This document shows positions 36,044 to 52,838 of a stretch of DNA of 64,000 bases, piece after piece. This DNA is from a virus, in the IMG/VR virus record IMGVR_UViG_3300021471_000001, positions 1 to 64,000 of that record. The stretch is one strand, 5' to 3'. The number at the start of each line of letters is the position of its first letter. The first letter of the stretch is position 1. The translations under genes were made by a program, and so were the position numbers. Below the pieces are notes generated by a model. It did not search any database. It saw only the letters and a list, made by a program, of their open reading frames with translations, and was not told the origin of the DNA.

Positions 36044-36538
36044 CTAATTACTAAACTTATGTCCACATTTTGGACATATTATGGTGTTTTCTTTGCTATC
36101 AAATGCAAAATTGTCCTCTTTTGTATTTATTATTTCGTCTAATTCGTTGTCTGAAAAAGGTAACTCTTCACGTATATCAACTTCATATTCTTTCTCAAGT
36201 TCAACTAACAAGTCCTTTAACACATCATTGTCAGCATAACCCTTTGTCTCATTAAGTCTTATGCTTAAGCGTTTTGCCTCTTTGTCACTTAGAGTCCCAA
36301 GATTGTTTATACTTATTTCCTTCATACCAAGTTCTATACAAGCCTTCCATCTATGCTCTCCGTCTATTATCTCATAGAAACCGTCTTTCTCTCTTACAAC
36401 TATTGGTACAACAAATCCATCTTCACTTATGCTTTGTTTTTCCTTCTCAAACATAAAGCTATTTTGTATGTTATAATTCCAATCATTCGGCTTTACTTTA
36501 TCAATGCTTATTTTCTGTTCATTAACCTTTATTTTCAT
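36044..36538 (-). CDS. ParB/sulfiredoxin-like domain protein with zinc-ribbon end
   Basis: The 164-residue protein contains a ParB-N-like fold: VKPNDWNYN, ISEDGFVVPIVV, DGFYEIIDGEHRWKACIELG (GEHR box at 60-63) and KRLSIRLNETKGYAD. The C-terminus has a CPKCGH half zinc ribbon. ParB-like proteins near terminase genes are common in phages. Some bind CTP, some act as nucleases, and others work with methyltransferases. It is the first gene after the strong promoter at 36575-36603. Confidence 0.75.
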   Translation of the reverse strand: MKIKVNEQKISIDKVKPNDWNYNIQNSFMFEKEKQSISEDGFVVPIVVREKDGFYEIIDGEHRWKACIELGMKEISINNLGTLSDKEAKRLSIRLNETKGYADNDVLKDLLVELEKEYEVDIREELPFSDNELDEIINTKEDNFAFDSKENTIICPKCGHKFSN

Positions 36539-38533: not shown

Positions 38534-39310
38534 TTATGACATAGTATTACATATACCTACACACTCAAACAATGGATACTCATCCTTATAGTAAAAGCCG
38601 CTCAACTCTCCTTTTTCAATCTTAATCCTAAAATCTTCTAAAGTTATATCTTTAAGAAAGTGTACATCCTTAGAAAACTTTTTCCTAAATCGCCTTTCTA
38701 CTCTTTCTCTATCTGCATATACATCAGGTAGCTTATCATATAGTCTTTTCCATTGTCTTTTACCTTGCCTAACACAACCACCTGAACAATTGTTATGGCT
38801 AAATCCTAACTTATATAATATTGGCTCTTCAATCCCAGAATGCTTTATAAAATCATCTATTTCCATAGAATTAATACCATGCTCTATAAGAGGGAATCTT
38901 ATTCGACACATTTTTTTCTTTTTAGCTGCTATTACTTGATATACAGATACAATTCTTTGTGCTCTATGCTCTTCATCTTTACTAATGCCAAAAATTATTG
39001 TATCACCATTCTTATAAAACTTTTGAAGTCTTTCTGCTTTAAGTATACGAGAGCAAAATGGCATACGATCGCAAGCAAGAGCCTTTTGATCAAAAAAAAG
39101 CTGTTCAGGACTTCTTCCATCTGTATCCTTTGTTACTTCCTTTTTTAAAAACCTACTCAGATCATCTAAAAAACGGTATAGGTCTGGATGTTCCCACTTG
39201 GTGTCATTAAAATATAACACAATATCGTCCTTATCAAAGTTTCTCATTGCCCAATTAGCACACCATGCACTAGCTTTTCCACCACTTAAAGCTACTATAA
39301 TTCTTCCCAT
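38534..39310 (-). CDS. PP-loop (PAPS-reductase/CysH-like) protein
   Basis: The 258-residue protein has the pyrophosphate loop SGGKASAW (9-16) after strand RIIVAL, and the strand-2 segment IVLYFNDTKWEHPDLYRFLDD. Cys-rich pieces follow (LACDRMPFCSRILK; NNCSGGCVRQGKRQW; FECVGICN). PP-loop enzymes activate substrates by adenylation or reduce PAPS; the Cys set suggests an iron-sulfur or zinc site. A second PP-loop protein ends the csf operon at 41862-42557, and cysH-like genes are regular partners of type IV-B systems. Its substrate is unknown; Dnd-type DNA modification enzymes also use this fold. Confidence 0.75.
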   Translation of the reverse strand: MGRIIVALSGGKASAWCANWAMRNFDKDDIVLYFNDTKWEHPDLYRFLDDLSRFLKKEVTKDTDGRSPEQLFFDQKALACDRMPFCSRILKAERLQKFYKNGDTIIFGISKDEEHRAQRIVSVYQVIAAKKKKMCRIRFPLIEHGINSMEIDDFIKHSGIEEPILYKLGFSHNNCSGGCVRQGKRQWKRLYDKLPDVYADRERVERRFRKKFSKDVHFLKDITLEDFRIKIEKGELSGFYYKDEYPLFECVGICNTMS

Positions 39311-40130: not shown

Positions 40131-40391
40131 TCAATTAAACATATCTAACTGCTTATTGTATTTAACATTACCATTTACAACTTCATACTTTTGAAAACAG
40201 AACAGGCAAATATATAAGTTATCTTTATTATCGAACTCGTACTTTTCCTGTCGTTCTTGTTTTCCACAATTTGGACACCTTATATTCGTTTCTTCAAAAC
40301 AAGATGGACAAAGATATGAATTAACCTTCTCACAAAAAATAAGCTTTTCAGATGGAATCTTCCTTTCACATTTTGGACACCTTATAATCAT
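40131..40391 (-). CDS. Multi-zinc-ribbon protein, 86 aa
   Basis: Five Cys pairs or singles are spaced as zinc ribbons: CPKC (5-8), FCEK, CPSC, CPNC and CLFC. It has a perfect AGGAGG site and starts one base from the RusA gene stop. The protein probably binds nucleic acid or another early protein. It has no visible enzymatic motif. Confidence 0.6.
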   Translation of the reverse strand: MIIRCPKCERKIPSEKLIFCEKVNSYLCPSCFEETNIRCPNCGKQERQEKYEFDNKDNLYICLFCFQKYEVVNGNVKYNKQLDMFN

Positions 40392-40742
40392 TTATACCTC
40401 CTTTACAGTTATCATTAAATAGTTTTCCTTGTCTGGCAAACGCTTTACACTTATATAATCGACCTGACTATCGTCTACAAAGACAATTCCCTTCAAACCA
40501 TCTATAGAAGCCTTTATAACATTATCTATATCTCTAAGCTTAACCATAAAAGACACTTCTATATTGATTCTTATGCGCTTACTTGACATCTTGGGTTTTT
40601 GTGAAAGGCATAAATATCCCAAAGCCCTCTTAAAATCCTTTACTGGACGCTTTAAATATATTCTACCATTTCTACTTATACCATAGGACTGATTTACAGA
40701 CGGTATTAAACCTGTATACTCTATCTTACATATAGTTTTCAT
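40392..40742 (-). CDS. rusA: RusA-family Holliday junction resolvase
   Basis: The 116-residue protein carries the RusA core LRDIDNVIKASIDGLKGIVF VDDSQV, with Asp71, Asp73 and the Asp90/Asp91 pair expected to bind magnesium, plus a GLIPSVNQSYG start. RusA cuts four-way DNA junctions made during recombination and clears branches before packaging. It fits with the annealing protein and SSB at 53329-54488. GGAGG precedes the ATG. Confidence 0.88.
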   Translation of the reverse strand: MKTICKIEYTGLIPSVNQSYGISRNGRIYLKRPVKDFKRALGYLCLSQKPKMSSKRIRINIEVSFMVKLRDIDNVIKASIDGLKGIVFVDDSQVDYISVKRLPDKENYLMITVKEV

Positions 40743-40978
40743 AATATCCTCCCATCAAAATAATTTACAAGCTTTTCTGTCATTTCATCTGTCAGTCTCA
40801 AATAATGCCGATTTAACTTCTCCCAAACCCTTCTCAATCTATCTTTTGCCTCACCTTCTTTTAACCTACTGCCCAACTGCCTTACTTTTTCCATCAACCT
40901 GTACGTCTCTTCTTTGTTCCAACCACCATTTATAAATGATACGTACTCTTCATATATAGTTCTAATCTCTTTTAACAT
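40739..40978 (-). CDS. Small helical protein, 79 aa
   Basis: The start is put at ATG 40978 (MLKEIRTIYEEYVSF) after AAAGGATG, three codons inside a longer frame. It is fully helical and charged (TYRLMEKVRQLGSRLKEGEA). It overlaps both neighbours slightly, so it is co-translated with the XRE regulator and RusA. Function unknown. Confidence 0.5.
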   Translation of the reverse strand: MLKEIRTIYEEYVSFINGGWNKEETYRLMEKVRQLGSRLKEGEAKDRLRRVWEKLNRHYLRLTDEMTEKLVNYFDGRIL

Positions 40979-41288
40979 CTCGAACATCCTTTAAAATTCC
41001 TTTCAACAAAGATAATAATTCTAATAAAGCTTTAGATTGCAATTCCAAAGCCAATTTTTTAATTTTAGGTTCCAACTTGCCATACTCTCTATGTAAAGAG
41101 CATCTGATATCATACGACTCATCTAGTACTTTACCCAAAACAAAAAGAAATTTATTTGATGGATTTTCTTTTCCAGATTCTATTCTTGATATATATCCTT
41201 TACTAAAACCCATGATGGAAGATAGTTTGCCAACACTTAAATTATGTCTTTCTCTTAAAGACGCTACAGAAATAATATTTTTAACCAA
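40962..41288 (-). CDS. XRE-family helix-turn-helix regulator (TTG start)
   Basis: TTG 41288 lies after GGAGGTGGAGAT. Residues of about 10-60 form a Cro/CI-type helix-turn-helix: LRERHNLSVGKLSSIMGFSK GYISRIESGKENPSNK. A helical tail follows. It is likely a repressor or activator of early genes, but no paired operator was identified next to it. Confidence 0.8.
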   Translation of the reverse strand: MVKNIISVASLRERHNLSVGKLSSIMGFSKGYISRIESGKENPSNKFLFVLGKVLDESYDIRCSLHREYGKLEPKIKKLALELQSKALLELLSLLKGILKDVRDVKRD

Positions 41289-41302
41289 ATCTCCACCTCC
41301 AT

Positions 41303-41836
41303 TTACAAATTTACCATAATTTTACCCAAACGATTTTCTCTTTGAGCTTTGTAATGGTTTTTTACAATATTGTGAAATTCATTTAATGACTTTCTAGAAA
41401 CATGTTCAGACAAGTAATATATATCACTCTTTTTCCTACCACTGCCATCATCGTAAAAAACTTCAATAGTCACTTCCACACGAAATCCTACCTCCATATC
41501 TACTTTTATAAAGTCCCTTTCAGCTTTGTATATAAAGCATGGACCAAAAGTCAAAAAGCCATAATCGTCCATAGTCCAATTAAACTTATAGGCGTGCCTT
41601 TTAATATACTCAAAAAGCTGAACAATGTTTCCACCTTGAACACTAGGCATATAGCTAATATTATAATTGCCTTCCATAACATCTTGGTATATTTCCTCTG
41701 CCCTATTTTTATCTATACCATAAAGTTCAACCGCTGCCTCTATCATAGCCTCTTTGTCATACTTATTTTCAGGCAACGTACCACTTCTTACCGCTTCCTC
41801 ATCAACCATCTTAAAAAAAGCATCTTTATCTATCAT
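41303..41836 (-). CDS. Unknown protein downstream of the csf/cysH operon, 177 aa
   Basis: The protein has an acidic helical N-terminal half (AAVELYGIDKNRAEEIYQDV) and a strand-rich part with DYGFLTFGPCFIYKAERDFI KVDMEVGFRVEVTIEVFY. It has an AAGGAG site and follows the CysH-like gene by 25 bases, so it may belong to the same unit. I do not recognise it. Confidence 0.5.
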   Translation of the reverse strand: MIDKDAFFKMVDEEAVRSGTLPENKYDKEAMIEAAVELYGIDKNRAEEIYQDVMEGNYNISYMPSVQGGNIVQLFEYIKRHAYKFNWTMDDYGFLTFGPCFIYKAERDFIKVDMEVGFRVEVTIEVFYDDGSGRKKSDIYYLSEHVSRKSLNEFHNIVKNHYKAQRENRLGKIMVNL

Positions 41837-41861
41837 ACTTTACTCCTTGAATAATAATAAT

Positions 41862-42557
41862 TTAAAAATATCTAAGTTTCCAACTTAACACATTGTCTAT
41901 TTCTGGACAACCATAAGCTAAAAACTCTGGGTCAAAAAGCGTTGTGAAACGTACTTTATCCCATCCCACGACAGGTGAATACTTGTCGTAGTAACTAATA
42001 TAAGGAATGCCGTTTTCTACTATGTAGCCCCACACATCAAGCCACGTCAAATCTCGGATAGGAAAAACTTCTTTCATTTCCGTTAAAGAACGACCTGAAG
42101 TTATTCTCAACCGTCTTTTTATGCTTTCTTCTTTTCTCAAACCGACAAAACAACAATCATATCCTTCTTTTATCAATCTAGGAATTAATCCCTTGATTAA
42201 ATCCATTCCTATCACGTTTGTAGCTTTTCGTTTTAATTTATCGTACAACTCGGAAGTCTCTACACGTAAGTTTTCTACGCCTATCTTTTTTGCATTTTCC
42301 ATTATTTCATTGAAATACACTCTCGGCATATAATACTTTCCGTAATCCCAATGTAAAACCATTATGTCTTTTTGCTGTTCTATAATCATGTGTAACATAA
42401 CGGTTGAGTCCTTTCCTCCAGAGAAAGCGACGTAAGACTTGTTATATTTCTTTAAGCTCTTTTTCACAATATCTTTAGCATTATCTATTCTCTCTCTATA
42501 CTCTTCTGTTGTACTATGTAAAGCAAAAGTTTCTCTTATTCTTTCTTCCATAACCAT
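41862..42557 (-). CDS. CysH-like PP-loop protein linked to the type IV-B locus
   Basis: This 231-residue protein has SYVAFSGGKDSTVMLHMI with the PP-loop SGGKDST at 46-52. It also has the strand 'DIMVLHWDYGKYYMPRVYFN', CFVGLRKEESIKRR and FPIRDLTWLDVWGYI. This is the PAPS/adenosine-phosphosulfate reductase fold, though the C-terminal Cys motif of true CysH (ECGIH) is absent. cysH-like genes neighbour many type IV-B csf operons and their role there is unknown. It ends the overlapping series that starts with csf1, sharing its first base with the end of the methyltransferase. Confidence 0.8.
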   Translation of the reverse strand: MVMEERIRETFALHSTTEEYRERIDNAKDIVKKSLKKYNKSYVAFSGGKDSTVMLHMIIEQQKDIMVLHWDYGKYYMPRVYFNEIMENAKKIGVENLRVETSELYDKLKRKATNVIGMDLIKGLIPRLIKEGYDCCFVGLRKEESIKRRLRITSGRSLTEMKEVFPIRDLTWLDVWGYIVENGIPYISYYDKYSPVVGWDKVRFTTLFDPEFLAYGCPEIDNVLSWKLRYF

Positions 42558-43231
42558 TAACTCACTTTAAATTTTGCACCTTCCTTATTAAGCTTACTAA
42601 TAGCATGTGCTAAGCTATTTTTATTTATATCTACACCATAAAAACACTTACATTGATTATAACAAGCTAAAGCAGTTAACCCTCTTCCCATACACATGTC
42701 TACTATAGGTGATAATATTTCATATCCTATAGCATGATACGGCGTCATACTGTCATCCAAACCACTAAAATCCTTTTTACAAAGGTCATAGGCACCTCTG
42801 AGCAGATAAGCTTTTCTTTCTTTATAGTAAGTAATTTCCCAAACATCTACTATTGGAAAAAGCTTCCCCATTTCAAATTCAAAGACATCTACATATTGTT
42901 TTCCTATTTCCAAATAACAAACTTGAGCATTCGTTTCATTAATTCTTTCAAACAAAGACATATAAAAATCTGCATAATCTTTTATCTTATTTTCTTTACA
43001 TGCCTTATTAATAAAATAGTTTGTCAAAGCTTTATTCCAGGGGGGATCACAATAAACCATCTCCGCTTTTTTACAGTAAGTCGGATAATCATGTCTTATA
43101 TCACATACACTTATCATTGAATCTCCCTTTAAGTTGCTATCATAATAGTGCCATATCTCTCCCTCCTTGATTGGGAACTGATACCAAGCACTCATCTTTT
43201 TCTTTTTTTTCTTATTCTTTTTCTCTTCCAT
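42557..43231 (-). CDS. DNA methyltransferase-like protein (DPPW motif)
   Basis: The N-terminus is a lysine run. MVYCDPPWNKAL (motif IV, DPPW at 62-65) comes before ILSPIVDMCMGRGLTALACY NQCKCFYGVDIN (SAM-binding motif I), the order of beta-class amino-methyltransferases. The product is therefore probably N6-adenine or N4-cytosine methylation of DNA. At 224 residues it is short and has little target-recognition region. It overlaps the glycosyltransferase-like gene by 40 bases, with its own AGGAG site, and lies in the csf operon. Confidence 0.7.
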   Translation of the reverse strand: MEEKKNKKKKKKMSAWYQFPIKEGEIWHYYDSNLKGDSMISVCDIRHDYPTYCKKAEMVYCDPPWNKALTNYFINKACKENKIKDYADFYMSLFERINETNAQVCYLEIGKQYVDVFEFEMGKLFPIVDVWEITYYKERKAYLLRGAYDLCKKDFSGLDDSMTPYHAIGYEILSPIVDMCMGRGLTALACYNQCKCFYGVDINKNSLAHAISKLNKEGAKFKVS

Positions 43232-43845
43232 ATCTTTACACTCCTTTCTTTTAGAAAATCTCTCTTTAATTTTTCTAAGTCAGTAACGCCAAAAGTCCTT
43301 GACTGTCTTTTAGAAGAACGTCTAGGATTGATTGAAGACCTTCCTACCCTATGATCTACCAAATTAGGTACAACAATCCAATATCTCATTTTCTTCTTAC
43401 GCAAAACCCAAGCAACAAATAAATCTGTCCCCGTCGGATTCTTACCACTATCATATACTTTCCAGCTTTCATAATATTCTAACAGTTCTTTTGACAATCC
43501 CATAGGCAAATAAAAACACACGCTACACATAAAAGAACCGCCTGAACAATATCTACTGCCTATCAATATATCATCTTTCCTTCTTGAAAAGAATTGTATA
43601 ACTTCATTTGGTCTTTTATCTATTTCTACACTAACTTTATCCAAAAAATTATCACACAATATAACATCGTCTTCCAAATGCAAGCATGGATATGACTTTG
43701 CAAGCTTCAACGCTTCTAAAAACGTGTCCATAGCATTCTTTGTTTTATCATAACAGTATATTGTGTCTTCTGGTAAATGATTCCGCAAATATTCTATGTA
43801 CGGTTCTCTTTTCTTAACACATTTAACAATTATTTTATAATTCAA
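43192..43845 (-). CDS. Glycosyltransferase-like protein (TTG start)
   Basis: TTG 43845 follows GAGGAG. The N-terminal half has a Rossmann-like strand (YKIIVKCVKKREPYI), a helix with MDTFLEALKLAKSYPCL and the LHLEDDVIL acidic motif (EDD 58-60), as in GT-A enzymes that bind a sugar nucleotide through a metal. The C-terminus is extremely basic (KIWKRKRIRKKRKR), suggesting contact with nucleic acid. Related phage genes accompany DNA modification enzymes. Here it sits between csf3 and a DNA methyltransferase, so glycosylation of DNA is a possibility. Confidence 0.6.
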   Translation of the reverse strand: MNYKIIVKCVKKREPYIEYLRNHLPEDTIYCYDKTKNAMDTFLEALKLAKSYPCLHLEDDVILCDNFLDKVSVEIDKRPNEVIQFFSRRKDDILIGSRYCSGGSFMCSVCFYLPMGLSKELLEYYESWKVYDSGKNPTGTDLFVAWVLRKKKMRYWIVVPNLVDHRVGRSSINPRRSSKRQSRTFGVTDLEKLKRDFLKERSVKIWKRKRIRKKRKR

Positions 43846-44575
43846 TTTCTATCTCCTCTTTTGGAATGCAACAAATATCCACATTTTCAGGAGACCAGTA
43901 CGGTGGCTTCCAAGCTACATTCACAACTCTTTTACATTTCTTTAAATATCGTCTCGGAATAGGTCTCATCGCCTTGCCATCTTTGATTAAACTATAATCT
44001 TTATCTGTACTCTTAATCTCAAAACCACTTACAGCACCATAACCAACACGACAATTATCTCCCAAACCCACAATCAAAGAACACAAATACTCCATCGCCT
44101 TTCTATCCGCATTAACATAAAAGCTTACTGTCCTAGTCGGTATATATATATGTCTCATCATATAATCCCTAAAGTGACCACTACCTTTACTTATTTTTCT
44201 ATGTCCTTTTATCCATCTATCCTCAAACTTCTTGTACAACACTTCCATTTTTAAGCTATCAGTATCGAAAAAAGAAATCGAACTATGGTATAAATCACCA
44301 TGAGAAAGCTTTATTGGACTTTCTGGTAAATCATTTTTATTTATCACTCGAAATAAATTAAACTTACGTGGAAGCAAATAATAATCTTTCCCTAAATACT
44401 TCAATAGAAGCAAATGTCCAATTAGTCCATCGAAGTTTAACCAAGCATGATTCAATGCTATTGGTGAGGACATATAAAAAATTATCTCCATAGGAGTATA
44501 TTTCATAGGTTTTGCATTCCGATTAATCGCTTCTACATACTTTTTTGCAAAATATTTTATTTCATCAATTATCAT
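43835..44575 (-). CDS. csf3: Type IV CRISPR Csf3 (Cas5-like) protein
   Basis: The 246-residue protein has the RAMP fold features of Csf3: 'YTPMEIIFYMSSPIALNHAW LNFDGLIGHLLLL' at the N-terminus and SLIVGLGDNCRVGYGAVSGF near the C-terminus (a Gly-rich loop). In between, SKGSGHFRDYMMRHIYIPTR TVSFYV. Csf3 is the Cas5-like subunit that caps the 5' end of the guide RNA in type IV complexes. It overlaps csf2 by four bases and is overlapped by the glycosyltransferase gene. The order csf1, cas11, csf2, csf3 matches subtype IV-B. Confidence 0.85.
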   Translation of the reverse strand: MIIDEIKYFAKKYVEAINRNAKPMKYTPMEIIFYMSSPIALNHAWLNFDGLIGHLLLLKYLGKDYYLLPRKFNLFRVINKNDLPESPIKLSHGDLYHSSISFFDTDSLKMEVLYKKFEDRWIKGHRKISKGSGHFRDYMMRHIYIPTRTVSFYVNADRKAMEYLCSLIVGLGDNCRVGYGAVSGFEIKSTDKDYSLIKDGKAMRPIPRRYLKKCKRVVNVAWKPPYWSPENVDICCIPKEEIEIEL

Positions 44576-45414
44576 TTTCCCTTTCCTAACTTTGCAATTA
44601 ATTCAATTAATAAATCTTTGTTACTTTCTACAAAGCTAATATACGCCTTACTATCGCTAATCTGTGGTCTATAGTCAAAAGACACTTCGCCATCACCTGT
44701 TGAACTTTTTCCACCAACAAATGGTGACTTTCTGAATAGCTCAATCACTCTTCCAAAACACGACTTTTCTAATTCCGTTGCCCACTCGAGTGAGAACCAG
44801 TGATAAAACTTTGTTCCTATACCAAAGCACTCATAGTCAACTTTCATCTGTTGAGCCTGCTCATCCTTCTCTCTATCGGCTTTTAAGTCGTCCTTACGTG
44901 TATGAAAGCTTTCGTCAGTAAATTCTTTCACGTTTTTATTTACTCTTTCGTCTTGTTTATATTGTTCAGGTAGGTATATATAATATTCTTTGCAGATTGG
45001 AAAAGCATGTCCGACTTTCAAAATTCCTGGTATCATTTGATTTCCTATTGCACAGCCAAAAACGGCAAGTGGTATAATCAAATCTCTTATTTCAGTACGC
45101 ATTTTCAGGTCTATGGTTGCGTAATTATCCTCTGTACTCTCTAATACACCACCTGTGAAGAATGTATGATATAGCTTTACTGGAAGTTTATCAACCTCAA
45201 ATCCAAGCAGTTCTAGAAAGTCTTTCATAATAAGACGTCTTAGCTTCCCCCTTATAGCATTGCCATGCAAGTATGGAAATGGTATTTCACCCATTCCATC
45301 AACGTAAAGGTAGATTGTCCTTAACACTGGTGTTGAACCAGTCTTTTCATTACCACCGTGATGTATTGGAGACTTCGCTAGAAGCCATCCTTCGTACTTT
45401 TGAATTATTTTCAT
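44572..45414 (-). CDS. csf2: Type IV CRISPR Csf2 (Cas7-like) backbone protein
   Basis: The 280-residue protein starts YEGWLLAKSPIHHGGNEKTG STPVLRTIYL and continues GEIPFPYLHGNAIRGKLRRL IMKDFLELLG, the hallmark of Csf2/Cas7 RAMP proteins. A later LFRKSPFVGGKSSTGDGEVS is the C-terminal Gly-rich loop. Csf2 multimerises along the guide RNA as the backbone of the type IV ribonucleoprotein. It has a perfect AGGAGG site and overlaps the cas11-like gene by four bases. I consider this the strongest Cas assignment in the window. Confidence 0.9.
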   Translation of the reverse strand: MKIIQKYEGWLLAKSPIHHGGNEKTGSTPVLRTIYLYVDGMGEIPFPYLHGNAIRGKLRRLIMKDFLELLGFEVDKLPVKLYHTFFTGGVLESTEDNYATIDLKMRTEIRDLIIPLAVFGCAIGNQMIPGILKVGHAFPICKEYYIYLPEQYKQDERVNKNVKEFTDESFHTRKDDLKADREKDEQAQQMKVDYECFGIGTKFYHWFSLEWATELEKSCFGRVIELFRKSPFVGGKSSTGDGEVSFDYRPQISDSKAYISFVESNKDLLIELIAKLGKGK

Positions 45415-45821
45415 TCTTTTACCTCCTCTGTCTTTTTTTGTTCATACATATCTTGTATGTCTATATCAAATGTAGGTTTACTTTTCCTACTACTTTTAAT
45501 CTCTTTTCCCTTTATGATAGCTCTTACACAAAAGGGAATGTGTTCAGAATAAAGCCTAGTAAGTACATAGACCTCATCCTTTCTTAAATCTTCGACTAAT
45601 CCTATACTTTCACCTGGTAGGGTCTGCAAACCAAAGTAATTACATAACTTACTTGCAAAAGCATAGATAGTCCCTCGTCTAGAAGCCGATCTAACACGGT
45701 GATTAAATATATCGTGCGGATTCTTAGACGTTTTCATACTATGCCAATTTATCTTACTGTATACCACAGCGAGTAAATCGACAAGCGTATCTTCTAAAAC
45801 CTTTTTCCTATTTGGAGACAT
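45411..45821 (-). CDS. Cas11-like small subunit of the type IV-B complex
   Basis: This 136-residue protein is mainly helical (LEDTLVDLLAVVYSKINWHS; RGTIYAFASKLCNYFGLQTL) with a strand-rich segment (DEVYVLTRLYSEHIPFCVRA IIK). It lies exactly between csf1 and csf2, where type IV-B loci encode the small subunit Cas11 that lines the belly of the complex. No motif is diagnostic, so the call rests on position, size and helical nature. It overlaps csf1 by 14 bases and csf2 by four. Confidence 0.65.
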   Translation of the reverse strand: MSPNRKKVLEDTLVDLLAVVYSKINWHSMKTSKNPHDIFNHRVRSASRRGTIYAFASKLCNYFGLQTLPGESIGLVEDLRKDEVYVLTRLYSEHIPFCVRAIIKGKEIKSSRKSKPTFDIDIQDMYEQKKTEEVKE

Positions 45822-46416
45822 AAGCTAACAACTCCCATAATGGATTTCTAATAAATGGTTTGGCACTTTCTATTAAGAAATACCAACCCTTTTCCATAGC
45901 TAGCCTTGAGTTTTTCATTGTTAATTCACCTCTAATTATTTCTGACTTTGAGACTTTATTCTCACGAAGCCTACATATTAGGTTGTGATAAGTCTTCACG
46001 TCACTTTGATTAACTAAAAAACTCCCGAGCCAGTCTGTGGAAACATAAAAATGAACGTTATCAAAGTTAATTCTTTGTAAGGAATCGAGCCACCCTTGTT
46101 TTTGGTAGCTCTTTGTAACATATAAAAAGAATGGAACAGGTTTTTCTCTCAATAAGGTCTCCAAAACCTCTTCTCTCTTTAAAAATACAACACTTTCCTC
46201 AGTAGCAAACCACGATTTCTTACGATAGTTCTGATTCCTAAAGAAATGATAACAATATTCACAAGTTACACCGCCATTTTTCAAGTATGAGTATCCTGTA
46301 AAACTGTTTGAGAATGGCAAATCAAAACCATTATTCGTCTCTTTACCACATACACAACAATAGCCAGATTTATCTCCTATTTCTGGACTTCTAATAACCA
46401 ATTCTGTAACTATCAT
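45808..46416 (-). CDS. csf1: Type IV CRISPR Csf1 (Cas8-like, zinc-finger) protein
   Basis: The 202-residue protein has a CxxC pair at 20-23 (CCVC) and another at 52-55 (CEYC), with 'DLPFSNSFTGYSYLKNGGVT' between them. This is the zinc finger typical of Csf1, the large-subunit marker of type IV CRISPR. The rest contains FFLYVTKSYQKQGWLDSLQR INFDNVHFYVSTDW and a helical C-terminus. Its start overlaps the stop of the AntA-type gene (ATGA), so both are translated together. No nuclease motif is present, as expected for type IV. Confidence 0.8.
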   Translation of the reverse strand: MIVTELVIRSPEIGDKSGYCCVCGKETNNGFDLPFSNSFTGYSYLKNGGVTCEYCYHFFRNQNYRKKSWFATEESVVFLKREEVLETLLREKPVPFFLYVTKSYQKQGWLDSLQRINFDNVHFYVSTDWLGSFLVNQSDVKTYHNLICRLRENKVSKSEIIRGELTMKNSRLAMEKGWYFLIESAKPFIRNPLWELLAYVSK

Positions 46417-47081
46417 CTTGACAACCTCTTTCTATACTGATAAAACAACTTTTCGATATTTAAGTACCTAGTTCTAACTACTTCACCTTTATAGCTTCTA
46501 CTAAGCATAATCAACTTCTTAGCAAAGTCAAGAGTCAGCTCATACTCTATCCTACGTGGAAAACCACGCCGATCATACTCGATAACATAGCGTTTATAAT
46601 CCCTTCCTTCCTTTGCATACAAATTTTGTTCTATGTTTTTTCGCTTCCATTTAGCATAATTACCAACGTCAAGTCCCAAAAACCTGTATAGCTCTGAGCT
46701 CATGATGGTTTTCTTTAACTCAATTTTTTCTGTAAATCTAGGTAAGCTCGTTTTCATAAAGCTTTTTCCCTTTTCTGCGTCTTTATACTCTTTTCTAGAT
46801 TCTTCTCTATCCTTTATATATCCCACTACAATTTCGTATCCTCTTTTGGTAAATACTCTTAGACGATTGACTTGTTCTACGTTATTATATAGGTCTTTGA
46901 TTTGAGACCTGAATACTTTTACATTATCGCCTGAAAGCAAATATGTATCTTTGTTTTCCTTCAAGTTTCGTTTCAAGAGCTTATTTGCAACTTGTTGAAT
47001 TCTCTTTTCTGTTACACCAAGCTCTTTTGCCATGTCTAAAACAGTAAATACTTGTTTACCATTAAAATATCTTTTTGTCAT
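46413..47081 (-). CDS. HTH plus AntA-type regulator ahead of the csf genes
   Basis: The start is set at ATG 47081 (MTKRYFNGKQVF) after TGGAGG. The N-terminal helix-turn-helix (VFTVLDMAKELGVTEKRIQQ VANKLL) is followed by a spacer, then an AntA/AntB domain (IMSSELYRFLGLDVGNYAKW ... EYELTLDFAKKLIMLSRSYK ... VRTRYLNIEKLF). It is related to 4661-5455. The gene overlaps csf1 and lies downstream of the DnaC-like gene, so it may control, or simply share, the message of the Cas genes. Confidence 0.75.
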   Translation of the reverse strand: MTKRYFNGKQVFTVLDMAKELGVTEKRIQQVANKLLKRNLKENKDTYLLSGDNVKVFRSQIKDLYNNVEQVNRLRVFTKRGYEIVVGYIKDREESRKEYKDAEKGKSFMKTSLPRFTEKIELKKTIMSSELYRFLGLDVGNYAKWKRKNIEQNLYAKEGRDYKRYVIEYDRRGFPRRIEYELTLDFAKKLIMLSRSYKGEVVRTRYLNIEKLFYQYRKRLSR

Positions 47082-47097
47082 AGCTTTAAACCTCCAT

Positions 47098-48069
47098 TTA
47101 TTTAAGTTCAATAAAGTTTTTACTATCATTACACTTCTCACTTATCCTTCTAAACATTGAAGTAAGAACATCACTCCATGAATTGTTTATGTCATAAATC
47201 ATTTTCTGTAAATCATAGATTGATTTGTTCGATGTAATAATGAACTGAAACCGCTCTCCACGTTTATAAATCGCATCAAACACAGCCAACATCTCTTTTA
47301 AGTTAAACTCTGTGAACTTCACTTTATCAAAGTCATCTATAAGAATATAGTAATATGATTCTGTCGGTGGAACAGTAATTTCCCATATTTTCAAATGTGT
47401 AAATGCTTTATAATCCCTTTCTAATCCATATTTTACAAACTCTTTTATCAGTTTATTACATGTGAAATTGTTAAAAGAGAATATTAAGTCTTGGTCTATG
47501 TAGTAGGAAAGTATCGCATACATGGAGTATGTTTTGCCAACGGCAGGTCTGCCATATAGATAAAAGGATTGTGGCTTTTCATAATTTTTAACCATATTAA
47601 AAAGCCTTTTCTGACAGCCATTCTTATGACTTTCAAAATTAGCATCTTTATAAATGCCAAACTTGTACTTCATCTTAGCTAACATATTTTTCCTGTAATC
47701 TTTGCTTTTCTCTTTGTATCGTCTATCTATCTCACACTGTCTGCAATAATCCCAAATCAGAACGTCGTTATCGAATTCTCTCGGCTTTCCGATTGTATCT
47801 TTTAAAGCATCTGCACTTATTTTAAAGAATGACGAAATCCACTCAATCTTACTAGCAAAGATTTTTGAACCGCAGACCTGACATAATTTAACGCTATCTC
47901 TAAGATTACCTTCAGTTACATATTTATTTATCGCTTCCATACGTTCTTTAACACTACTTGGAATTATATCTTTCTTTTCATTAGCTTTAATTTGTTCTAA
48001 TGGTATCTCAAACTTTGTTTTGACAGCCTTTTTTATTGGTTTGTCAAATGGATTTTCTTTGCTATTCAT
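47098..48069 (-). CDS. dnaC: DnaC-like helicase loader (AAA+ ATPase)
   Basis: This 323-residue protein has an N-terminal zinc site (Cys63-x2-Cys66 and Cys109-x2-Cys112). Its AAA+ core has Walker A GRPAVGKT (173-180), Walker B YILIDDFD, sensor FIITSNKS and an arginine-finger region MFRRISEKC. DnaC/DnaI proteins open the DnaB ring and load it at an origin. With the initiator gene 49908-51311, it suggests lambda-style theta replication using host DnaB and polymerase. It starts after AAGGAG. Confidence 0.88.
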   Translation of the reverse strand: MNSKENPFDKPIKKAVKTKFEIPLEQIKANEKKDIIPSSVKERMEAINKYVTEGNLRDSVKLCQVCGSKIFASKIEWISSFFKISADALKDTIGKPREFDNDVLIWDYCRQCEIDRRYKEKSKDYRKNMLAKMKYKFGIYKDANFESHKNGCQKRLFNMVKNYEKPQSFYLYGRPAVGKTYSMYAILSYYIDQDLIFSFNNFTCNKLIKEFVKYGLERDYKAFTHLKIWEITVPPTESYYYILIDDFDKVKFTEFNLKEMLAVFDAIYKRGERFQFIITSNKSIYDLQKMIYDINNSWSDVLTSMFRRISEKCNDSKNFIELK

Positions 48070-48072
48070 AAC

Positions 48073-48456
48073 TTACTCCTTTTGATTTTCTTCTTTGATA
48101 ATCTCATGTGGATATATGGCATGTTCTCTTGTCTCTTTGGCAATGTCTTCAACATAAGCGTTTGCTAAATTATTCCAAATGTCTACACTGTTTGTACATA
48201 TAATATTAAGTCTATAACCTTCACCGTCACTCTGAAAAAACAACACATCTTTATTCTTAATTTCGCTTTCATCAAGAGTTTTGCCATTCTTTAAACTATT
48301 AACAAGTTCTCCCAATACTTTATATAGCTTAAAGAGAGCCCTCTCATTAAGTACTATAAAGGAATCTGTATGCCAATATTGTTGTGAATAAATGTGACAT
48401 GCGGCTATAGTTTTATAGTGCTTTTTAAGTATTTCTCTTACTTCCTTTTTATCCAT
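48073..48456 (-). CDS. Unknown early protein, 127 aa
   Basis: The protein is helical in its first two thirds (KEVREILKKHYKTIAACHIY, ALFKLYKVLGELVNSL) and has a strand pair (KDVLFFQSDGEGYRLNIICT). It lies between the duplicated family and the DnaC-like gene with a GAGGGGG site, overlapping the former by eight bases. Not recognised. Confidence 0.55.
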   Translation of the reverse strand: MDKKEVREILKKHYKTIAACHIYSQQYWHTDSFIVLNERALFKLYKVLGELVNSLKNGKTLDESEIKNKDVLFFQSDGEGYRLNIICTNSVDIWNNLANAYVEDIAKETREHAIYPHEIIKEENQKE

Positions 48457-48781
48457 CTTTTTCCCCCTCTCGGTTTTTTAAAACGTGCTCTAAGATAATA
48501 TTAAACAATTTAGATTGTAGATTTAATTCGTTCAGTAATGTGCTTCCAAAGTCATCATGAAAACGCTCATTGAGAGATAGTTTACTGGTGATCATGATGA
48601 ATAGCATGGTAATAGCTCCCTCATAAAAGCTTTTGTCTTTATCAAAACTGAACTTGCTTTTTAAAATACTACATCCATCTAAGCTTAAGTCACCGCTATC
48701 AAGATCACTACTAAAATCTTTTAAAGCTTTTGTAGGAATAATTACATCCCAAAATTTTAATTCTTTTTCTTTATTACTCAT
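48449..48781 (-). CDS. Member 1 of a duplicated phage family, 110 aa
   Basis: The C-terminal half has SKFSFDKDKSFYEGAITMLF then NLQSKLFNIILEHVLKNREG. The same 'F.FD..D.FYEG ... L.N..L.HVLK.R' pattern is found in 48774-49136 and twice in 49223-49915. It is helical with no enzymatic motif. The strong AAAGGAGG site and overlapping starts show one transcript. Function unknown. Confidence 0.6.
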   Translation of the reverse strand: MSNKEKELKFWDVIIPTKALKDFSSDLDSGDLSLDGCSILKSKFSFDKDKSFYEGAITMLFIMITSKLSLNERFHDDFGSTLLNELNLQSKLFNIILEHVLKNREGEKDG

Positions 48782-49136
48782 ATTTTTCCTCCTTTCTGTT
48801 CTTCAAAACATATTCTGAGATAGATTTAAACAAATTCGTTTCTAAGTTTGATATATGTAAAAGTATACTTCCTAAATCATCTGTTTTTTCAGTATAGTAC
48901 ATGTGAGCCATCATAATCGTATATAAAACCGCTACTGCCCCCTCATAAAAACTATCACTTTCATCAAAGCTCAACCGCTTTTCTACAAAACTGATACTAT
49001 TTGGGCCATCACTAATATCCACATCATAAAACTTTTTTATGATTTTTGTACTAACCGAGATGCCCTCAAGTAAAAATTCCAACTCACTTTCAGTAATACA
49101 TCTATCCCAAAATAATTCCTTCTCTTTATTATTCAT
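48774..49136 (-). CDS. Member 2 of a duplicated phage family, 120 aa
   Basis: It opens with MNNKEKELFWDRCITESELE and contains EKRLSFDESDSFYEGAVAVL and SNLETNLFKSISEYVLKNRK. These line up with 48449-48781 and with both halves of 49223-49915. It overlaps member 1 by eight bases. The family may form helical bundles; no known function. Confidence 0.6.
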   Translation of the reverse strand: MNNKEKELFWDRCITESELEFLLEGISVSTKIIKKFYDVDISDGPNSISFVEKRLSFDESDSFYEGAVAVLYTIMMAHMYYTEKTDDLGSILLHISNLETNLFKSISEYVLKNRKEEKYE

Positions 49137-49222: not shown

Positions 49223-49915
49223 TTAATAATTCATCCTCATTTTCAAAACAAAGCTTGATACAATGTTAAAAATACTTGTAATAAATAAAATTAAACTTTC
49301 TAAAACTTCTTCTTTCTTCTCGTAGGCAAAATTAAAACGATTATAAGCATCAAGCACAGCCGTCAAGGACGAAACAAAGCCATCATAAAAGTTTTCACCC
49401 TTATCAAAATTAAAAAATTTTGCTAAATCTTTTTCATACATAGAAATATTTATATTAAAATGCTTAACACTTTTTCTAAAGCTTGGTATAATTTCTGATA
49501 CAGTTATCAATTCACCATTACTAATAACCTTATCTATGTAATGTTCAGAATCATCTTTATTACAACCACTTTTATCATTTCTTGTTTTTAAAACATGCTT
49601 TAATACTGCATTATATAAACCAGACATAACCTCAAAAACCTGTGCAACAACAGTTTTATAGTCTTCAAATTTATTTAAAGCATTTGTCAAACATAAAAAT
49701 ACATGATGAACTGATGAAATAAAACCTTCATAGAAAATATCGTCCTTTTCGAAAAGCATAAATTCCCTAGAAATATGGTCTCTATTTACACTTATATCTG
49801 GAACGTATGGGACCTTCTCTTTTGCAAGCTTTAATTCACTATTCAGAAGCTTAAAATCAAGTTCGGATAGCATTCTATCACTATTAAAAGCTTTAATCTC
49901 TCTTCTATTACTCAT
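49223..49915 (-). CDS. Member 3, with two tandem copies of the family domain, 230 aa
   Basis: The first copy has EFMLFEKDDIFYEGFISSVH and GLYNAVLKHVLKTRNDK. The second has KFFNFDKGENFYDGFVSSLT and IFNIVSSFVLKMRMNY. The gene is thus an internal duplication of the domain in 48449-48781 and 48774-49136. It begins inside the end of the initiator gene after AAGGAG, so expression is coupled to replication. Confidence 0.65.
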   Translation of the reverse strand: MSNRREIKAFNSDRMLSELDFKLLNSELKLAKEKVPYVPDISVNRDHISREFMLFEKDDIFYEGFISSVHHVFLCLTNALNKFEDYKTVVAQVFEVMSGLYNAVLKHVLKTRNDKSGCNKDDSEHYIDKVISNGELITVSEIIPSFRKSVKHFNINISMYEKDLAKFFNFDKGENFYDGFVSSLTAVLDAYNRFNFAYEKKEEVLESLILFITSIFNIVSSFVLKMRMNY

Positions 49916-51311
49916 TTTCTTTTACTCCTTCATCATTATACTTATGTGGATAGTAATCTCTAAGACATTTCTCTTCCCATTCTTCATCTGTCATCAGACT
50001 AGGATCGGTCTTTCTCTTTTCTATATACTCTGCCTTTAAGTTAGAATATTTCCTTAGTAGTATAGAAGGAATTAATTCGTATTTATACCAATCTTTCTTC
50101 AGTGCAAAATTGACAATCCTACGAAACAAATCTCTATCTTTTTCTATTCTAGCAATATAACGGAATTGTCCTATTTCAGATATTGTAAGAGAGCAATAGA
50201 AACCGTGCACTTCTTTCCACTCTTCAAAATATATTTTCCTTAAGTCTTCTGAAAGCTTTTTTTCTAAACTTTTCTTACCTTTTCCATTTCTAGAAGGTTT
50301 AAGTACTTTACTTGCTTCTTCAAAAAGATATTCTGTACTAGTATTAACATTATCTTTACTTTGACTTACTTTTTCTATACTACTAGTACTAGAATCTATG
50401 TTATGGGAACTAGTACCTAGAGTAGAGTCTATGTTAGAAGTACAAGTTGTACTAGATTCCTTAGTACTAGAGTCTTTGCTAGAAGAACTAGATTCTTTAG
50501 GTCTAGTTGTACTAGATTCTCTAGTAGATCTAGATCTACTAGAAGTACTAGAAGATTCATCAACTTTTTCTTTAGAAAAAGTTGATGGTTTTTCTTTATT
50601 TTTTTTTCTAGATCTTTCTTTATATTCTTTATTTCTAGTTTCTTTAGGATTCTCGAAATGCTTTTCAGAAAAGCTTTTTTGCGGTGTAACTTGTGTATTT
50701 TTTACACAAGTTATTAATCCTTTGTCAATCCCGTTTTCGAAGACATCGAGTTTGTTATCACTGTCTGGTTGCTGATTCCCAACTTGTGTATTTTTTACAC
50801 AAGTTTTGTGTAAACTTTCCCCAAGTTGGCTTTTATCTTTGACACTGTCTTTAGAGTAATCTTGTTCCATTTTGTTGTTCTCTGATAAAGATTTTTCAGG
50901 TTGTGTATTTTTTACACAAGTTGTTTCCTTGCTTTCAATTTCTTTTTTCGGAGTTGCAACGTCTATTTTGTTGTTGGAGACTTTATCTTCAACTTGTGTA
51001 ATATTTACACAAGTTTGATTTCCTCTTTTCTCACTTGTGTAATATTTACACAAGTTTATTATACGCCCCTGTCCCTGTCTTGTTTTCACTTCTATTATAC
51101 CTTTTCTTTTTAATTCAGAAAGACATTTTGTAATCGTCTTATTATTCAATCCAGTTTCAGAAATGAGTTTACAATTTGTTAATTTTGTTCCTCTTCTTTG
51201 AAAGCCATTCGTATATCGAAATATTATGAAAAGTAGTTTCGTAGCATTTCCTGAAAGGTGAATTAAATCTTTTTTATCGATCAAATCATTATCAAACATA
51301 GTAAAGCCCAT
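49908..51311 (-). CDS. Replication initiator-like protein carrying the origin
   Basis: The 467-residue protein has an N-terminal winged-helix domain like phage O/RepA N-terminal or MarR-like initiators (LSGNATKLLFIIFRYTNGFQ, SETGLNNKTITKCLSELKRK GIIEV). A long Ser/Thr/Lys-rich low-complexity middle and a folded helical C-terminus follow (EWKEVHGFYCSLTISEIGQF ... NFALKKDWYKYELIPSILLR). The middle contains repeated TCVKNTQ units, which are the coding shadow of five palindromic iterons. An initiator binding repeats inside its own gene is the arrangement of lambda O. The gene lies just upstream of the DnaC-like loader region. Confidence 0.75.
   Translation of the reverse strand: MGFTMFDNDLIDKKDLIHLSGNATKLLFIIFRYTNGFQRRGTKLTNCKLISETGLNNKTITKCLSELKRKGIIEVKTRQGQGRIINLCKYYTSEKRGNQTCVNITQVEDKVSNNKIDVATPKKEIESKETTCVKNTQPEKSLSENNKMEQDYSKDSVKDKSQLGESLHKTCVKNTQVGNQQPDSDNKLDVFENGIDKGLITCVKNTQVTPQKSFSEKHFENPKETRNKEYKERSRKKNKEKPSTFSKEKVDESSSTSSRSRSTRESSTTRPKESSSSSKDSSTKESSTTCTSNIDSTLGTSSHNIDSSTSSIEKVSQSKDNVNTSTEYLFEEASKVLKPSRNGKGKKSLEKKLSEDLRKIYFEEWKEVHGFYCSLTISEIGQFRYIARIEKDRDLFRRIVNFALKKDWYKYELIPSILLRKYSNLKAEYIEKRKTDPSLMTDEEWEEKCLRDYYPHKYNDEGVKENE
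50381..50587 (-). repeat. CTAG-rich palindromic tract inside the initiator gene
   Basis: About 200 bases code for the Ser-rich linker and contain many CTAG tetramers, often as TACTAG or CTAGAT. A perfect 22-base palindrome lies at 50521-50542 and a perfect 13-bp hairpin at 50558-50587 (CATCAACTTTTTC and GAAAAAGTTGATG, loop TTTA). The tract is next to the iterons and may help melt or fold the origin. Confidence 0.6.
50688..51055. repeat. Five palindromic iterons; probable replication origin
   Basis: Five copies of ACTTGTGTA, five A/T bases, TACACAAGT occur at 50688-50712, 50781-50805, 50898-50922 (left outer arm changed), 50991-51015 and 51033-51055. Centres use TTTTT or ATATT. Four copies are read as TCVKNTQ or TCVNITQ, but the fifth is read in another frame (NLCKYYTSE). 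DNA sequence, not protein, is therefore conserved. The location within an initiator gene strongly suggests an origin. Confidence 0.75.
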
Positions 51312-52025: not shown

Positions 52026-52838
52026 CTATTTAAAAAGTTTATTTTGATTAAAATGAAACTTGAAAAAGTCTGGAAACTCTTGATAGACTTTACCATCAAT
52101 CAGATTACCACCCTTGAAACTTCCATCACTGCATTCTCCTTTTCTACCCCACTGTTTGAAGAAAAATGGTATCTTTAAGCTTTCACAATAGTTTTTTATA
52201 TTAATAACCCAATCTTTTTTCATGGGGCGTGCACATTTGCCACCAGTTTCTCCCCCAACTATCACCCAACTGACGTATTGCAATTTACTGTATAAAGATG
52301 CATTCATTTTTTCTAGCAGAGGTTCAAAAGAAACAAAAATGTTGAATTTAAAAATATTGTAAACTGTGTATACTAAAGCTTTCAGACGATGTAACGCTCG
52401 ATTATTTTCTACAGTCACGCCTATCATAACGTTTCTAGGTAAACCTTCAAAATTGATACCATGACTACGATAGAAGTCCATCTCGATAAAATGCGTGATT
52501 AATTTATCTATACGCTTTGTCAGTATCAAAAAAATATGTTGTTTAGATTTTTCGATAGTAGAAAAGACTTGTGCAATAAAATTATGACTAACTTCTTCAT
52601 GAAACAAGTCTGACATTGAATTTACAAATATTAATTTAGGTTTTTTCCATTTTAACGGCGTATTTAATTCATTTTCATGACAAACAACTTTATTAAAACC
52701 ATATTTATATTTTTTTAATCCCATAGCTTGTAGTCTTTTTGTCATTCTTTCTGCATAGCAATATCTACAACCGTCACTTACTTTAGTACACCCTGTCACA
52801 ATATTCCAAGTTTCCTCTGCCCATTCAATTTTTGTCAT
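52026..52838 (-). CDS. DUF5131 / phage Gp37-Gp68-type protein
   Basis: The 270-residue protein starts MTKIEWAEETWNIVTGCTKV SDGCRYCYAERMTKRL, with Cys17, Cys24 and Cys27 in the family's C-x6-C-x2-C cluster. It then shows PKLIFVNSMSDLFHEEV, IFLILTKRIDKLI, NVMIGVTVENN, FVSFEPLLEKM and WVIVGGETGGKCARPM. This matches the phage family now called DUF5131, thought to be radical-SAM-like because of the three-Cys cluster. Its substrate is unknown. It overlaps the small ORF 52825-52998, which carries its ribosome site. Confidence 0.8.
   Translation of the reverse strand: MTKIEWAEETWNIVTGCTKVSDGCRYCYAERMTKRLQAMGLKKYKYGFNKVVCHENELNTPLKWKKPKLIFVNSMSDLFHEEVSHNFIAQVFSTIEKSKQHIFLILTKRIDKLITHFIEMDFYRSHGINFEGLPRNVMIGVTVENNRALHRLKALVYTVYNIFKFNIFVSFEPLLEKMNASLYSKLQYVSWVIVGGETGGKCARPMKKDWVINIKNYCESLKIPFFFKQWGRKGECSDGSFKGGNLIDGKVYQEFPDFFKFHFNQNKLFK

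What the first reader, a model, noticed from the sequence alone, without database searches (positions are those of the whole stretch)
43835..46416. Phage-borne type IV-B CRISPR-Cas operon without an array
Four overlapping genes code for Csf1 (zinc finger), a Cas11-sized helical protein, Csf2 and Csf3, the order described for subtype IV-B. No Cas6, DinG-like helicase, Cas1/Cas2 or repeat array is visible anywhere in the window. Known type IV-B loci are mostly on plasmids and their function is not settled. Here the set is in the early region of a phage with structural genes, suggesting use against rival elements or as an anti-defence complex.
Basis: partly seen in the sequence, partly recalled or inferred. 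Interest (0 to 1): 0.92.

Follow-up and report, generated by a model that had tools for sequence, protein, structure and literature searches.

The report
Phage CRISPR operon with methyltransferase
A phage carries a complete set of type IV-B CRISPR proteins, a poorly understood kind with no memory array and no cutting enzyme, and its genes are interleaved with DNA-modifying enzymes, which hints that such complexes may help modify nucleic acids rather than cut them.

Summary
46416-43835 (-) encodes Csf1, Cas11, Csf2 and Csf3 (PADLOC E 3e-34, 4e-34, 2e-70, 2e-52), in a virus with terminase, portal, major head and replication genes. No CRISPR array, Cas1, Cas2, Cas6 or DinG was found. Phage or viral IV-B is already known (Fuxiviridae; some phages), so the operon itself is a new member of a known subtype.

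The new element is the methyltransferase. Its family, absent from 50,697 phage records with either query, usually sits in a cassette with a DUF3440 PAPS reductase and a ParB-like protein. It lies beside type IV csf genes in 13 of 45 viral loci, against 0 of 79 control methyltransferase loci. There are at least five arrangements (for example csf3-MT-cysH, csf1-MT-cas11), and the tree needs about 8 changes. The Csf2 clade lacks the putative catalytic Asp. I favour an early RNA-bound complex that binds without cutting and works with modification enzymes. RNA-sponge and silencing models remain open. Nothing was tested at the bench.

The parts
45808..46416 (-). Csf1 (Cas8-like large subunit, 4-Cys zinc finger)
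   Evidence: PADLOC Csf1_0_IV 3.1e-34; C20/C23/C52/C55 invariant in 19 homologues
45411..45821 (-). Cas11 small subunit
   Evidence: PADLOC Cas11_0_IV 4e-34
44572..45414 (-). Csf2 (Cas7 backbone subunit)
   Evidence: PADLOC Csf2_0_IV 2e-70; PDB 7jhy 1.3e-14; GSTPVLRT motif without the Asp42 of 7jhy
43835..44575 (-). Csf3 (Cas5)
   Evidence: PADLOC Csf3_0_IV 1.7e-52; TIGR03116 6.3e-13
43192..43845 (-). glycosyltransferase-like protein (LEDDV motif), between csf3 and the methyltransferase
   Evidence: phrog_854 glucosyltransferase 3.3e-8; its relatives L092-L095 adjoin DUF3440/ParB genes
42557..43231 (-). small beta-class DNA N6-adenine methyltransferase (DPPW and DxCxGxG motifs), between csf3 and cysH
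   Evidence: PDB profile search DpnA/M1.HpyAVI 1.2e-5; AlphaFold2 pLDDT 93, Foldseek M1.HpyAVI 2.7e-7; motifs conserved
41862..42557 (-). CasCysH: type IV-B-associated PAPS-reductase-like PP-loop protein
   Evidence: PAPS_reduct 6.9e-18; member of the csf-adjacent family; SGGKDS invariant, C-terminal Cys not conserved; model pLDDT 88, best fold match CysH 6vpu
36044..36538 (-). ParB-N domain protein related to the cassette ParB (possible partner, 5 kb downstream)
   Evidence: ParB_N 1.8e-10; cassette ParB HMM 150 bits
38534..39310 (-). second PAPS-reductase-like gene, not of the CasCysH family
   Evidence: phrog_424 5.1e-40; PAPS_reduct 1.7e-11

Best explanation
This is a phage-encoded type IV-B CRISPR-Cas effector operon, csf1-cas11-csf2-csf3-[GT-MTase]-casCysH, transcribed with the early replication genes. 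Shown here: gene identity, order, overlap, lack of array, adaptation and nuclease genes, lack of the putative catalytic Asp in Csf2, and recurrent linkage with one methyltransferase family and a DUF3440-ParB cassette. Inferred: the proteins build a Cas7/Cas11 filament on small RNAs taken from the infected cell, because the phage supplies no array. The filament pairs with or holds nucleic acid without cutting it, and the ATP-using CasCysH and the methyltransferase modify the bound nucleic acid. The modified product would most likely protect the phage or disarm a host defence.
For: Identity. CasCysH is next to csf genes in nearly all relatives (24 of 27 viral csf2 loci have a CysH; two of the three exceptions, L022 and L025, end within or just after csf2, so their downstream is not seen). 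The methyltransferase lies inside the csf operon in three arrangements: window csf3-GT-MT-cysH, L002 csf3-MT-cysH, L044 csf1-MT-cas11. In L055, L065 and L085 the cassette lies between csf3 and a CysH. 13 of 45 loci of this methyltransferase family carry csf genes against 0 of 79 control methyltransferase loci, Fisher p 5e-7, or 1.4e-4 after a rough collapse of relatives. About 8 changes of the csf label on the methyltransferase tree (7-9 in bootstraps, at least 4 forced by starred branches). Divergent csf neighbours confirmed by independent profiles. Methyltransferase fold and motifs intact. Csf2 lacks Asp42. No array, Cas1, Cas2, Cas6 or DinG. Taylor et al. (PMC8175902) proposed on other grounds that IV-B complexes recruit CasCysH to modify nucleic acid.
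Against: Gene linkage is not a physical or functional interaction. Most members of the methyltransferase family (32 of 45) have no csf nearby, and most IV-B loci have no methyltransferase nearby (3 of 17 with enough flank have one), so neither needs the other. The known IV-B complex bound heterogeneous RNA (PMC7937560), which fits a sponge as well. The control methyltransferases may come from different hosts. The substrate of CasCysH is unknown.
Confidence: 0.42

Rival explanations
1. Guide-RNA sponge (anti-defence). The complex is made early, assembles unspecifically on small RNAs including host crRNAs, and so disarms host RNA-guided defence. The modification genes are separate phage counter-defence genes that merely sit nearby.
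For: Recombinant IV-B complex assembled on non-CRISPR RNAs and the sponge model is proposed for plasmids (PMC7937560; PMC8175902). No array and no catalytic Asp. Early-region location.
Against: Does not explain the near-universal CasCysH or the methyltransferase inside the operon in different positions.
Confidence: 0.25
2. RNA-guided silencing with borrowed crRNAs. As in type IV-A, the complex takes host (or rival) crRNAs and represses transcription of host or competitor genes without cleavage.
For: IV-A acts by transcriptional repression (reviewed in PMC11656645; PMC12669027). A related IV-B locus, L043, has a true array of four 36-bp repeats downstream of its glycosyltransferase-like gene, and Fuxivirus IV-B has a mini-array (PMC10848311).
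Against: No DinG helicase, no Cas6 and no array in this phage; no repeat to match a host array; CasCysH and methyltransferase unexplained.
Confidence: 0.22
3. Ordinary neighbourhood effect. Methyltransferase, ParB, PAPS reductase and csf genes are all early-region accessory genes of the same uncultivated phages and drift together by mosaic exchange without working together. (Overlaps with the two rivals above; it concerns the linkage, not the Csf function.)
For: Many methyltransferase loci lack csf; phage early regions exchange genes freely (general knowledge).
Against: 0 of 79 control methyltransferase loci carry csf. The methyltransferase lies within the csf operon in the window, L002 and L044, with overlapping reading frames in the window. 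Expected chance overlap of the two rare families is about 4e-4 contigs (a rough estimate).
Confidence: 0.2

Closest known systems
Type IV-B Csf system of Mycobacterium sp. JS623 plasmid (PDB 7jhy; PMC7937560)
   Same: Csf1, Cas11, Csf2, Csf3 plus cysH; no array, Cas6 or nuclease; Csf2 matches the 7jhy chain
   Different: Phage-borne; Csf2 clade lacks Asp42; methyltransferase and glycosyltransferase-like genes sit between csf3 and cysH; Csf2 falls in a different, mainly viral clade
IV-B locus of Fuxiviridae, Bathyarchaeia viruses (PMC10848311)
   Same: Viral IV-B operon with CysH next to csf3 and no adaptation module
   Different: Fuxivirus has a two-repeat mini-array and infects archaea; no methyltransferase in its operon is described in the passages read
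Skermania phage SPI1 ORF40-44 (KR011061.1, L008)
   Same: Isolated tailed phage with csf1-cas11-csf2-csf3-cysH, annotated only as hypothetical proteins
   Different: Csf2 23% identical, in the actinobacterial IV-B clade; no methyltransferase between csf3 and cysH
Caldicoprobacter algeriensis TH7C1 locus (L037)
   Same: Same Csf2 clade (57% identity); csf1-cas11-csf2-csf3-casCysH followed by u298-DUF3440-ParB-MT
   Different: Methyltransferase lies in the complete cassette after cysH, not between csf3 and cysH; contig from a cultured strain
Thermococcus nautili plasmid THER333_p IV-B operon (L007)
   Same: csf1-cas11-csf2-csf3-cysH, Csf2 43% identical
   Different: Archaeal plasmid; no methyltransferase

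Membership tests
CRISPR-Cas subtype IV-B | csf1, csf2 and csf3 of type IV | tested here: met
   PADLOC; NCBIfam below cut-off; PDB 7jhy
CRISPR-Cas subtype IV-B | cas11 small-subunit gene between csf1 and csf2 | tested here: met
   Cas11_0_IV 4e-34 at 45411-45821
CRISPR-Cas subtype IV-B | associated cysH-like gene lacking the catalytic C-terminal Cys | tested here: met
   41862-42557; PAPS_reduct 6.9e-18; aligns with csf-adjacent CysH of relatives; the C-terminal Cys column is A/S/C/N across homologues; separated from csf3 by two genes
CRISPR-Cas subtype IV-B | no CRISPR array, Cas6 or adaptation genes | tested here: met
   The record may be an incomplete genome.
CRISPR-Cas subtype IV-B | Csf2 phylogeny with IV-B rather than IV-A or IV-C | tested here: inconclusive
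   the IV-B reference 7jhy groups with the Rhodococcus and Skermania rows, and the window lies in a well supported, mainly viral clade. The IV-A reference is partial and deep branches are unresolved.
CRISPR-Cas subtype IV-B | forms an RNA-bound Csf2/Cas11 filament | not testable with these tools
   Needs purification and microscopy
CRISPR-Cas subtype IV-A | DinG helicase, Cas6 and CRISPR array | tested here: not met
CRISPR-Cas subtype IV-C | Cas10-like large subunit with HD nuclease in place of Csf1 | tested here: not met
   The large subunit is Csf1 with zinc finger; all operon genes are otherwise assigned
beta-class DNA N6-adenine methyltransferase | DPPW motif IV preceding the SAM-binding motif I, beta-class fold | tested here: met
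   D62-P63-P64-W65 and D178-x-C180-x-G182-x-G184; Foldseek M1.HpyAVI and CcrM
beta-class DNA N6-adenine methyltransferase | methylates adenine in DNA | not testable with these tools
   Activity and target unknown

The most novel reading that the evidence does not exclude
Phage type IV-B complexes are RNA-guided nucleic-acid modification machines. The nuclease-less Csf filament directs a small methyltransferase and CasCysH, sometimes with the DUF3440-ParB cassette, to modify chosen DNA or RNA, marking self or silencing host and rival genomes.
Probability: 0.2. Interest if true: 0.93.

Novelty: new variant of a known kind. Interest (0 to 1): 0.62.

Why it matters
The function of subtype IV-B has been open for years: reviews held here (PMC8175902, PMC11127173, PMC11656645) list its target and mechanism as unknown and point to CysH as the main clue. 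A second, recurrent partner with an assayable activity (a DNA methyltransferase inside the operon) would make the question directly testable. Two cultured handles surfaced: Caldicoprobacter algeriensis TH7C1, with the same Csf2 clade and the methyltransferase cassette, and the isolated Skermania phage SPI1, whose IV-B operon is unannotated in its record.

Tried and rejected
Guide source inside the phage: no CRISPR-like repeats, no Rfam match in the window, and coding is packed from 40131 to 49136 with gaps of at most 25 bases, so no room for a hidden array in the operon. The short repeats found elsewhere are palindromes inside the O-like replication gene at 50.7-51.1 kb and zinc-ribbon or Myb-like coding repeats, not CRISPR. 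Window 38534-39310 as the CasCysH: rejected, it is not in the csf-adjacent family. RNase activity of Csf2: unlikely, since the putative catalytic Asp is absent in this clade. Search for the methyltransferase in isolated phages: no match with two different queries; in plasmids one match, a Fusobacterium plasmid. Search of about 400 genomes of the phylum of Caldicoprobacter: only two carry the methyltransferase family, and the second has no csf in the stretch read, too few for an independent association test. Host of the window phage: not settled; the terminase is only about 30% identical to phages of diverse hosts. Unread literature: Pinilla-Redondo 2020, Moya-Beltran 2021 and Shmakov 2018 are not held, so an earlier report of the methyltransferase link there cannot be excluded.
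Full report
Observation. PADLOC profiles assign them to type IV Csf1, Cas11, Csf2 and Csf3 with E-values of 3e-34, 4e-34, 2e-70 and 2e-52. NCBIfam agrees below its cut-offs, and the best PDB relative of Csf2 by sequence is the type IV-B Csf2 of entry 7jhy. The four zinc-finger cysteines of Csf1 are invariant in 19 homologues. The record (64,608 bases, IMG/VR) is a tailed phage: terminase, portal, major head protein, ribonucleotide reductase and an O-like replication protein. The operon sits between a DnaC-like loader plus antirepressor and a RusA resolvase, that is, in the early region. No CRISPR-like array and no Cas1, Cas2, Cas6 or DinG helicase domain were found.

The operon does not end at csf3. 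Three more genes follow with overlapping frames: a glycosyltransferase-like protein (43192-43845, phrog_854), a small methyltransferase (42557-43231) and a PAPS-reductase-like protein (41862-42557). The last belongs to the family that follows csf3 in nearly all relatives. It keeps the PP-loop SGGKDS and lacks a conserved C-terminal cysteine, as described for Cas-associated CysH (PMC8175902). Its predicted structure (pLDDT 88) is closest to CysH, CysD, FAD synthase and LarE folds.

Known ground. Viral IV-B with CysH is published for Bathyarchaeia viruses, and type IV in prophages and several lytic phages is mentioned there (PMC10848311; PMC11656645). I found 27 viral contigs and 13 genome contigs with close Csf2 relatives, mostly with the same csf1-cas11-csf2-csf3-cysH order; archaeal and actinobacterial plasmids; and an unannotated operon in the isolated Skermania phage SPI1. 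Phage carriage by itself is therefore not new.

The new element. The methyltransferase has intact motif IV (DPPW) and motif I. Its model (pLDDT 93) matches beta-class N6-adenine DNA methyltransferases such as M1.HpyAVI and CcrM. It has no relative in 50,697 phage records with either of two queries. In IMG/VR, 45 loci carry the family. In most of them it ends a cassette u298-DUF3440 PAPS reductase-ParB-MT, and relatives of the window's glycosyltransferase-like gene also adjoin DUF3440 or ParB genes. In 13 of the 45 loci type IV csf genes lie within the fetched flank (one, L059, with csf1 only), against 0 of 79 loci of an unrelated phage N6/N4 methyltransferase family (Fisher p 5e-7, or 1.4e-4 after collapsing relatives by a rough count). 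Arrangements differ: csf3-GT-MT-cysH (window), csf3-MT-cysH (L002), csf1-MT-cas11 (L044), csf operon then cassette (L005, L006, L037, L066), csf1-csf2-csf3 then cassette then CysH (L055, L065, L085), cassette then csf operon (L081), convergent (L080), csf3-CysH-MT-csf1 (L079). Several of these csf sets are divergent and were found only through the methyltransferase; PADLOC confirms the five tested. On the methyltransferase tree the csf label needs 8 changes (7-9 in bootstraps; at least 4 forced by starred branches), so the link was made or lost repeatedly rather than inherited once.

Mechanism. Shown: gene content, order, linkage and motifs. In this Csf2 clade the loop that holds the putative catalytic Asp42 of the JS623 protein reads GSTPVLRT, without Asp, and no nuclease gene accompanies the operon. 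Inferred: the complex binds but does not cut. With no array and no spare non-coding room in the operon, guides must come from elsewhere. The recurrent partners are enzymes of the nucleotide or nucleic-acid modification type (CasCysH, methyltransferase, sometimes DUF3440 reductase and ParB), which favours an RNA-bound complex that takes part in modification of nucleic acid. This extends the proposal of Taylor et al. for CasCysH (PMC8175902). A guide-RNA sponge and crRNA-borrowing silencing remain credible, and a neighbourhood effect is not excluded: most methyltransferase loci lack csf, and only 3 of 17 viral csf2 loci with enough flank carry the methyltransferase.

Verdict. Observation confirmed; interpretation partly supported. 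Membership in IV-B is secure by gene content (the Csf2 tree alone does not resolve the deep branches). The variant, IV-B interleaved with a DNA methyltransferase and a modification cassette, was not mentioned in any paper I could read, but three key papers were not held. Interest lies in making the IV-B function question testable.

Noticed in passing
L043:4044-4295: A type IV-B locus in a UBP9 metagenome-assembled genome has a true CRISPR array (four identical 36-bp repeats, three 36-bp spacers) about 0.8 kb downstream of cysH, with a glycosyltransferase-like gene between them; most IV-B loci are said to lack arrays.
   Followed up: partly
L008:4846-8479 (Skermania phage SPI1, KR011061.1): Isolated phage with an apparently unrecognised IV-B operon (ORF40-44, all annotated hypothetical).
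   Followed up: partly
L055, L065, L080, L081, L085: Divergent type IV csf systems in uncultivated viruses, found only through the methyltransferase; L081 has two tandem csf3 genes and a CysH between csf2 and csf3.
   Followed up: partly
window 50691-51053: Five palindromic repeats (TTGTGTATTTTTTACACAA or TTGTGTAATATTTACACAA) inside the O-like replication gene (49908-51311), resembling origin iterons or operator sites.
   Followed up: no
window 52026-52838 and L009:865-1653: A DUF5131 (phage Gp37/Gp68) protein is encoded in the window and also upstream of the csf operon on a Natrinema plasmid.
   Followed up: no
L007:8845-9588: Csf3 of the Thermococcus nautili plasmid is annotated as the endoribonuclease Cas6 in RefSeq; by position and profile it is Csf3.
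   Followed up: partly
L005:12251-13147 and most cassette loci: A conserved protein of about 298 residues without a Pfam family precedes the DUF3440-ParB-MT genes; function unknown.
   Followed up: partly
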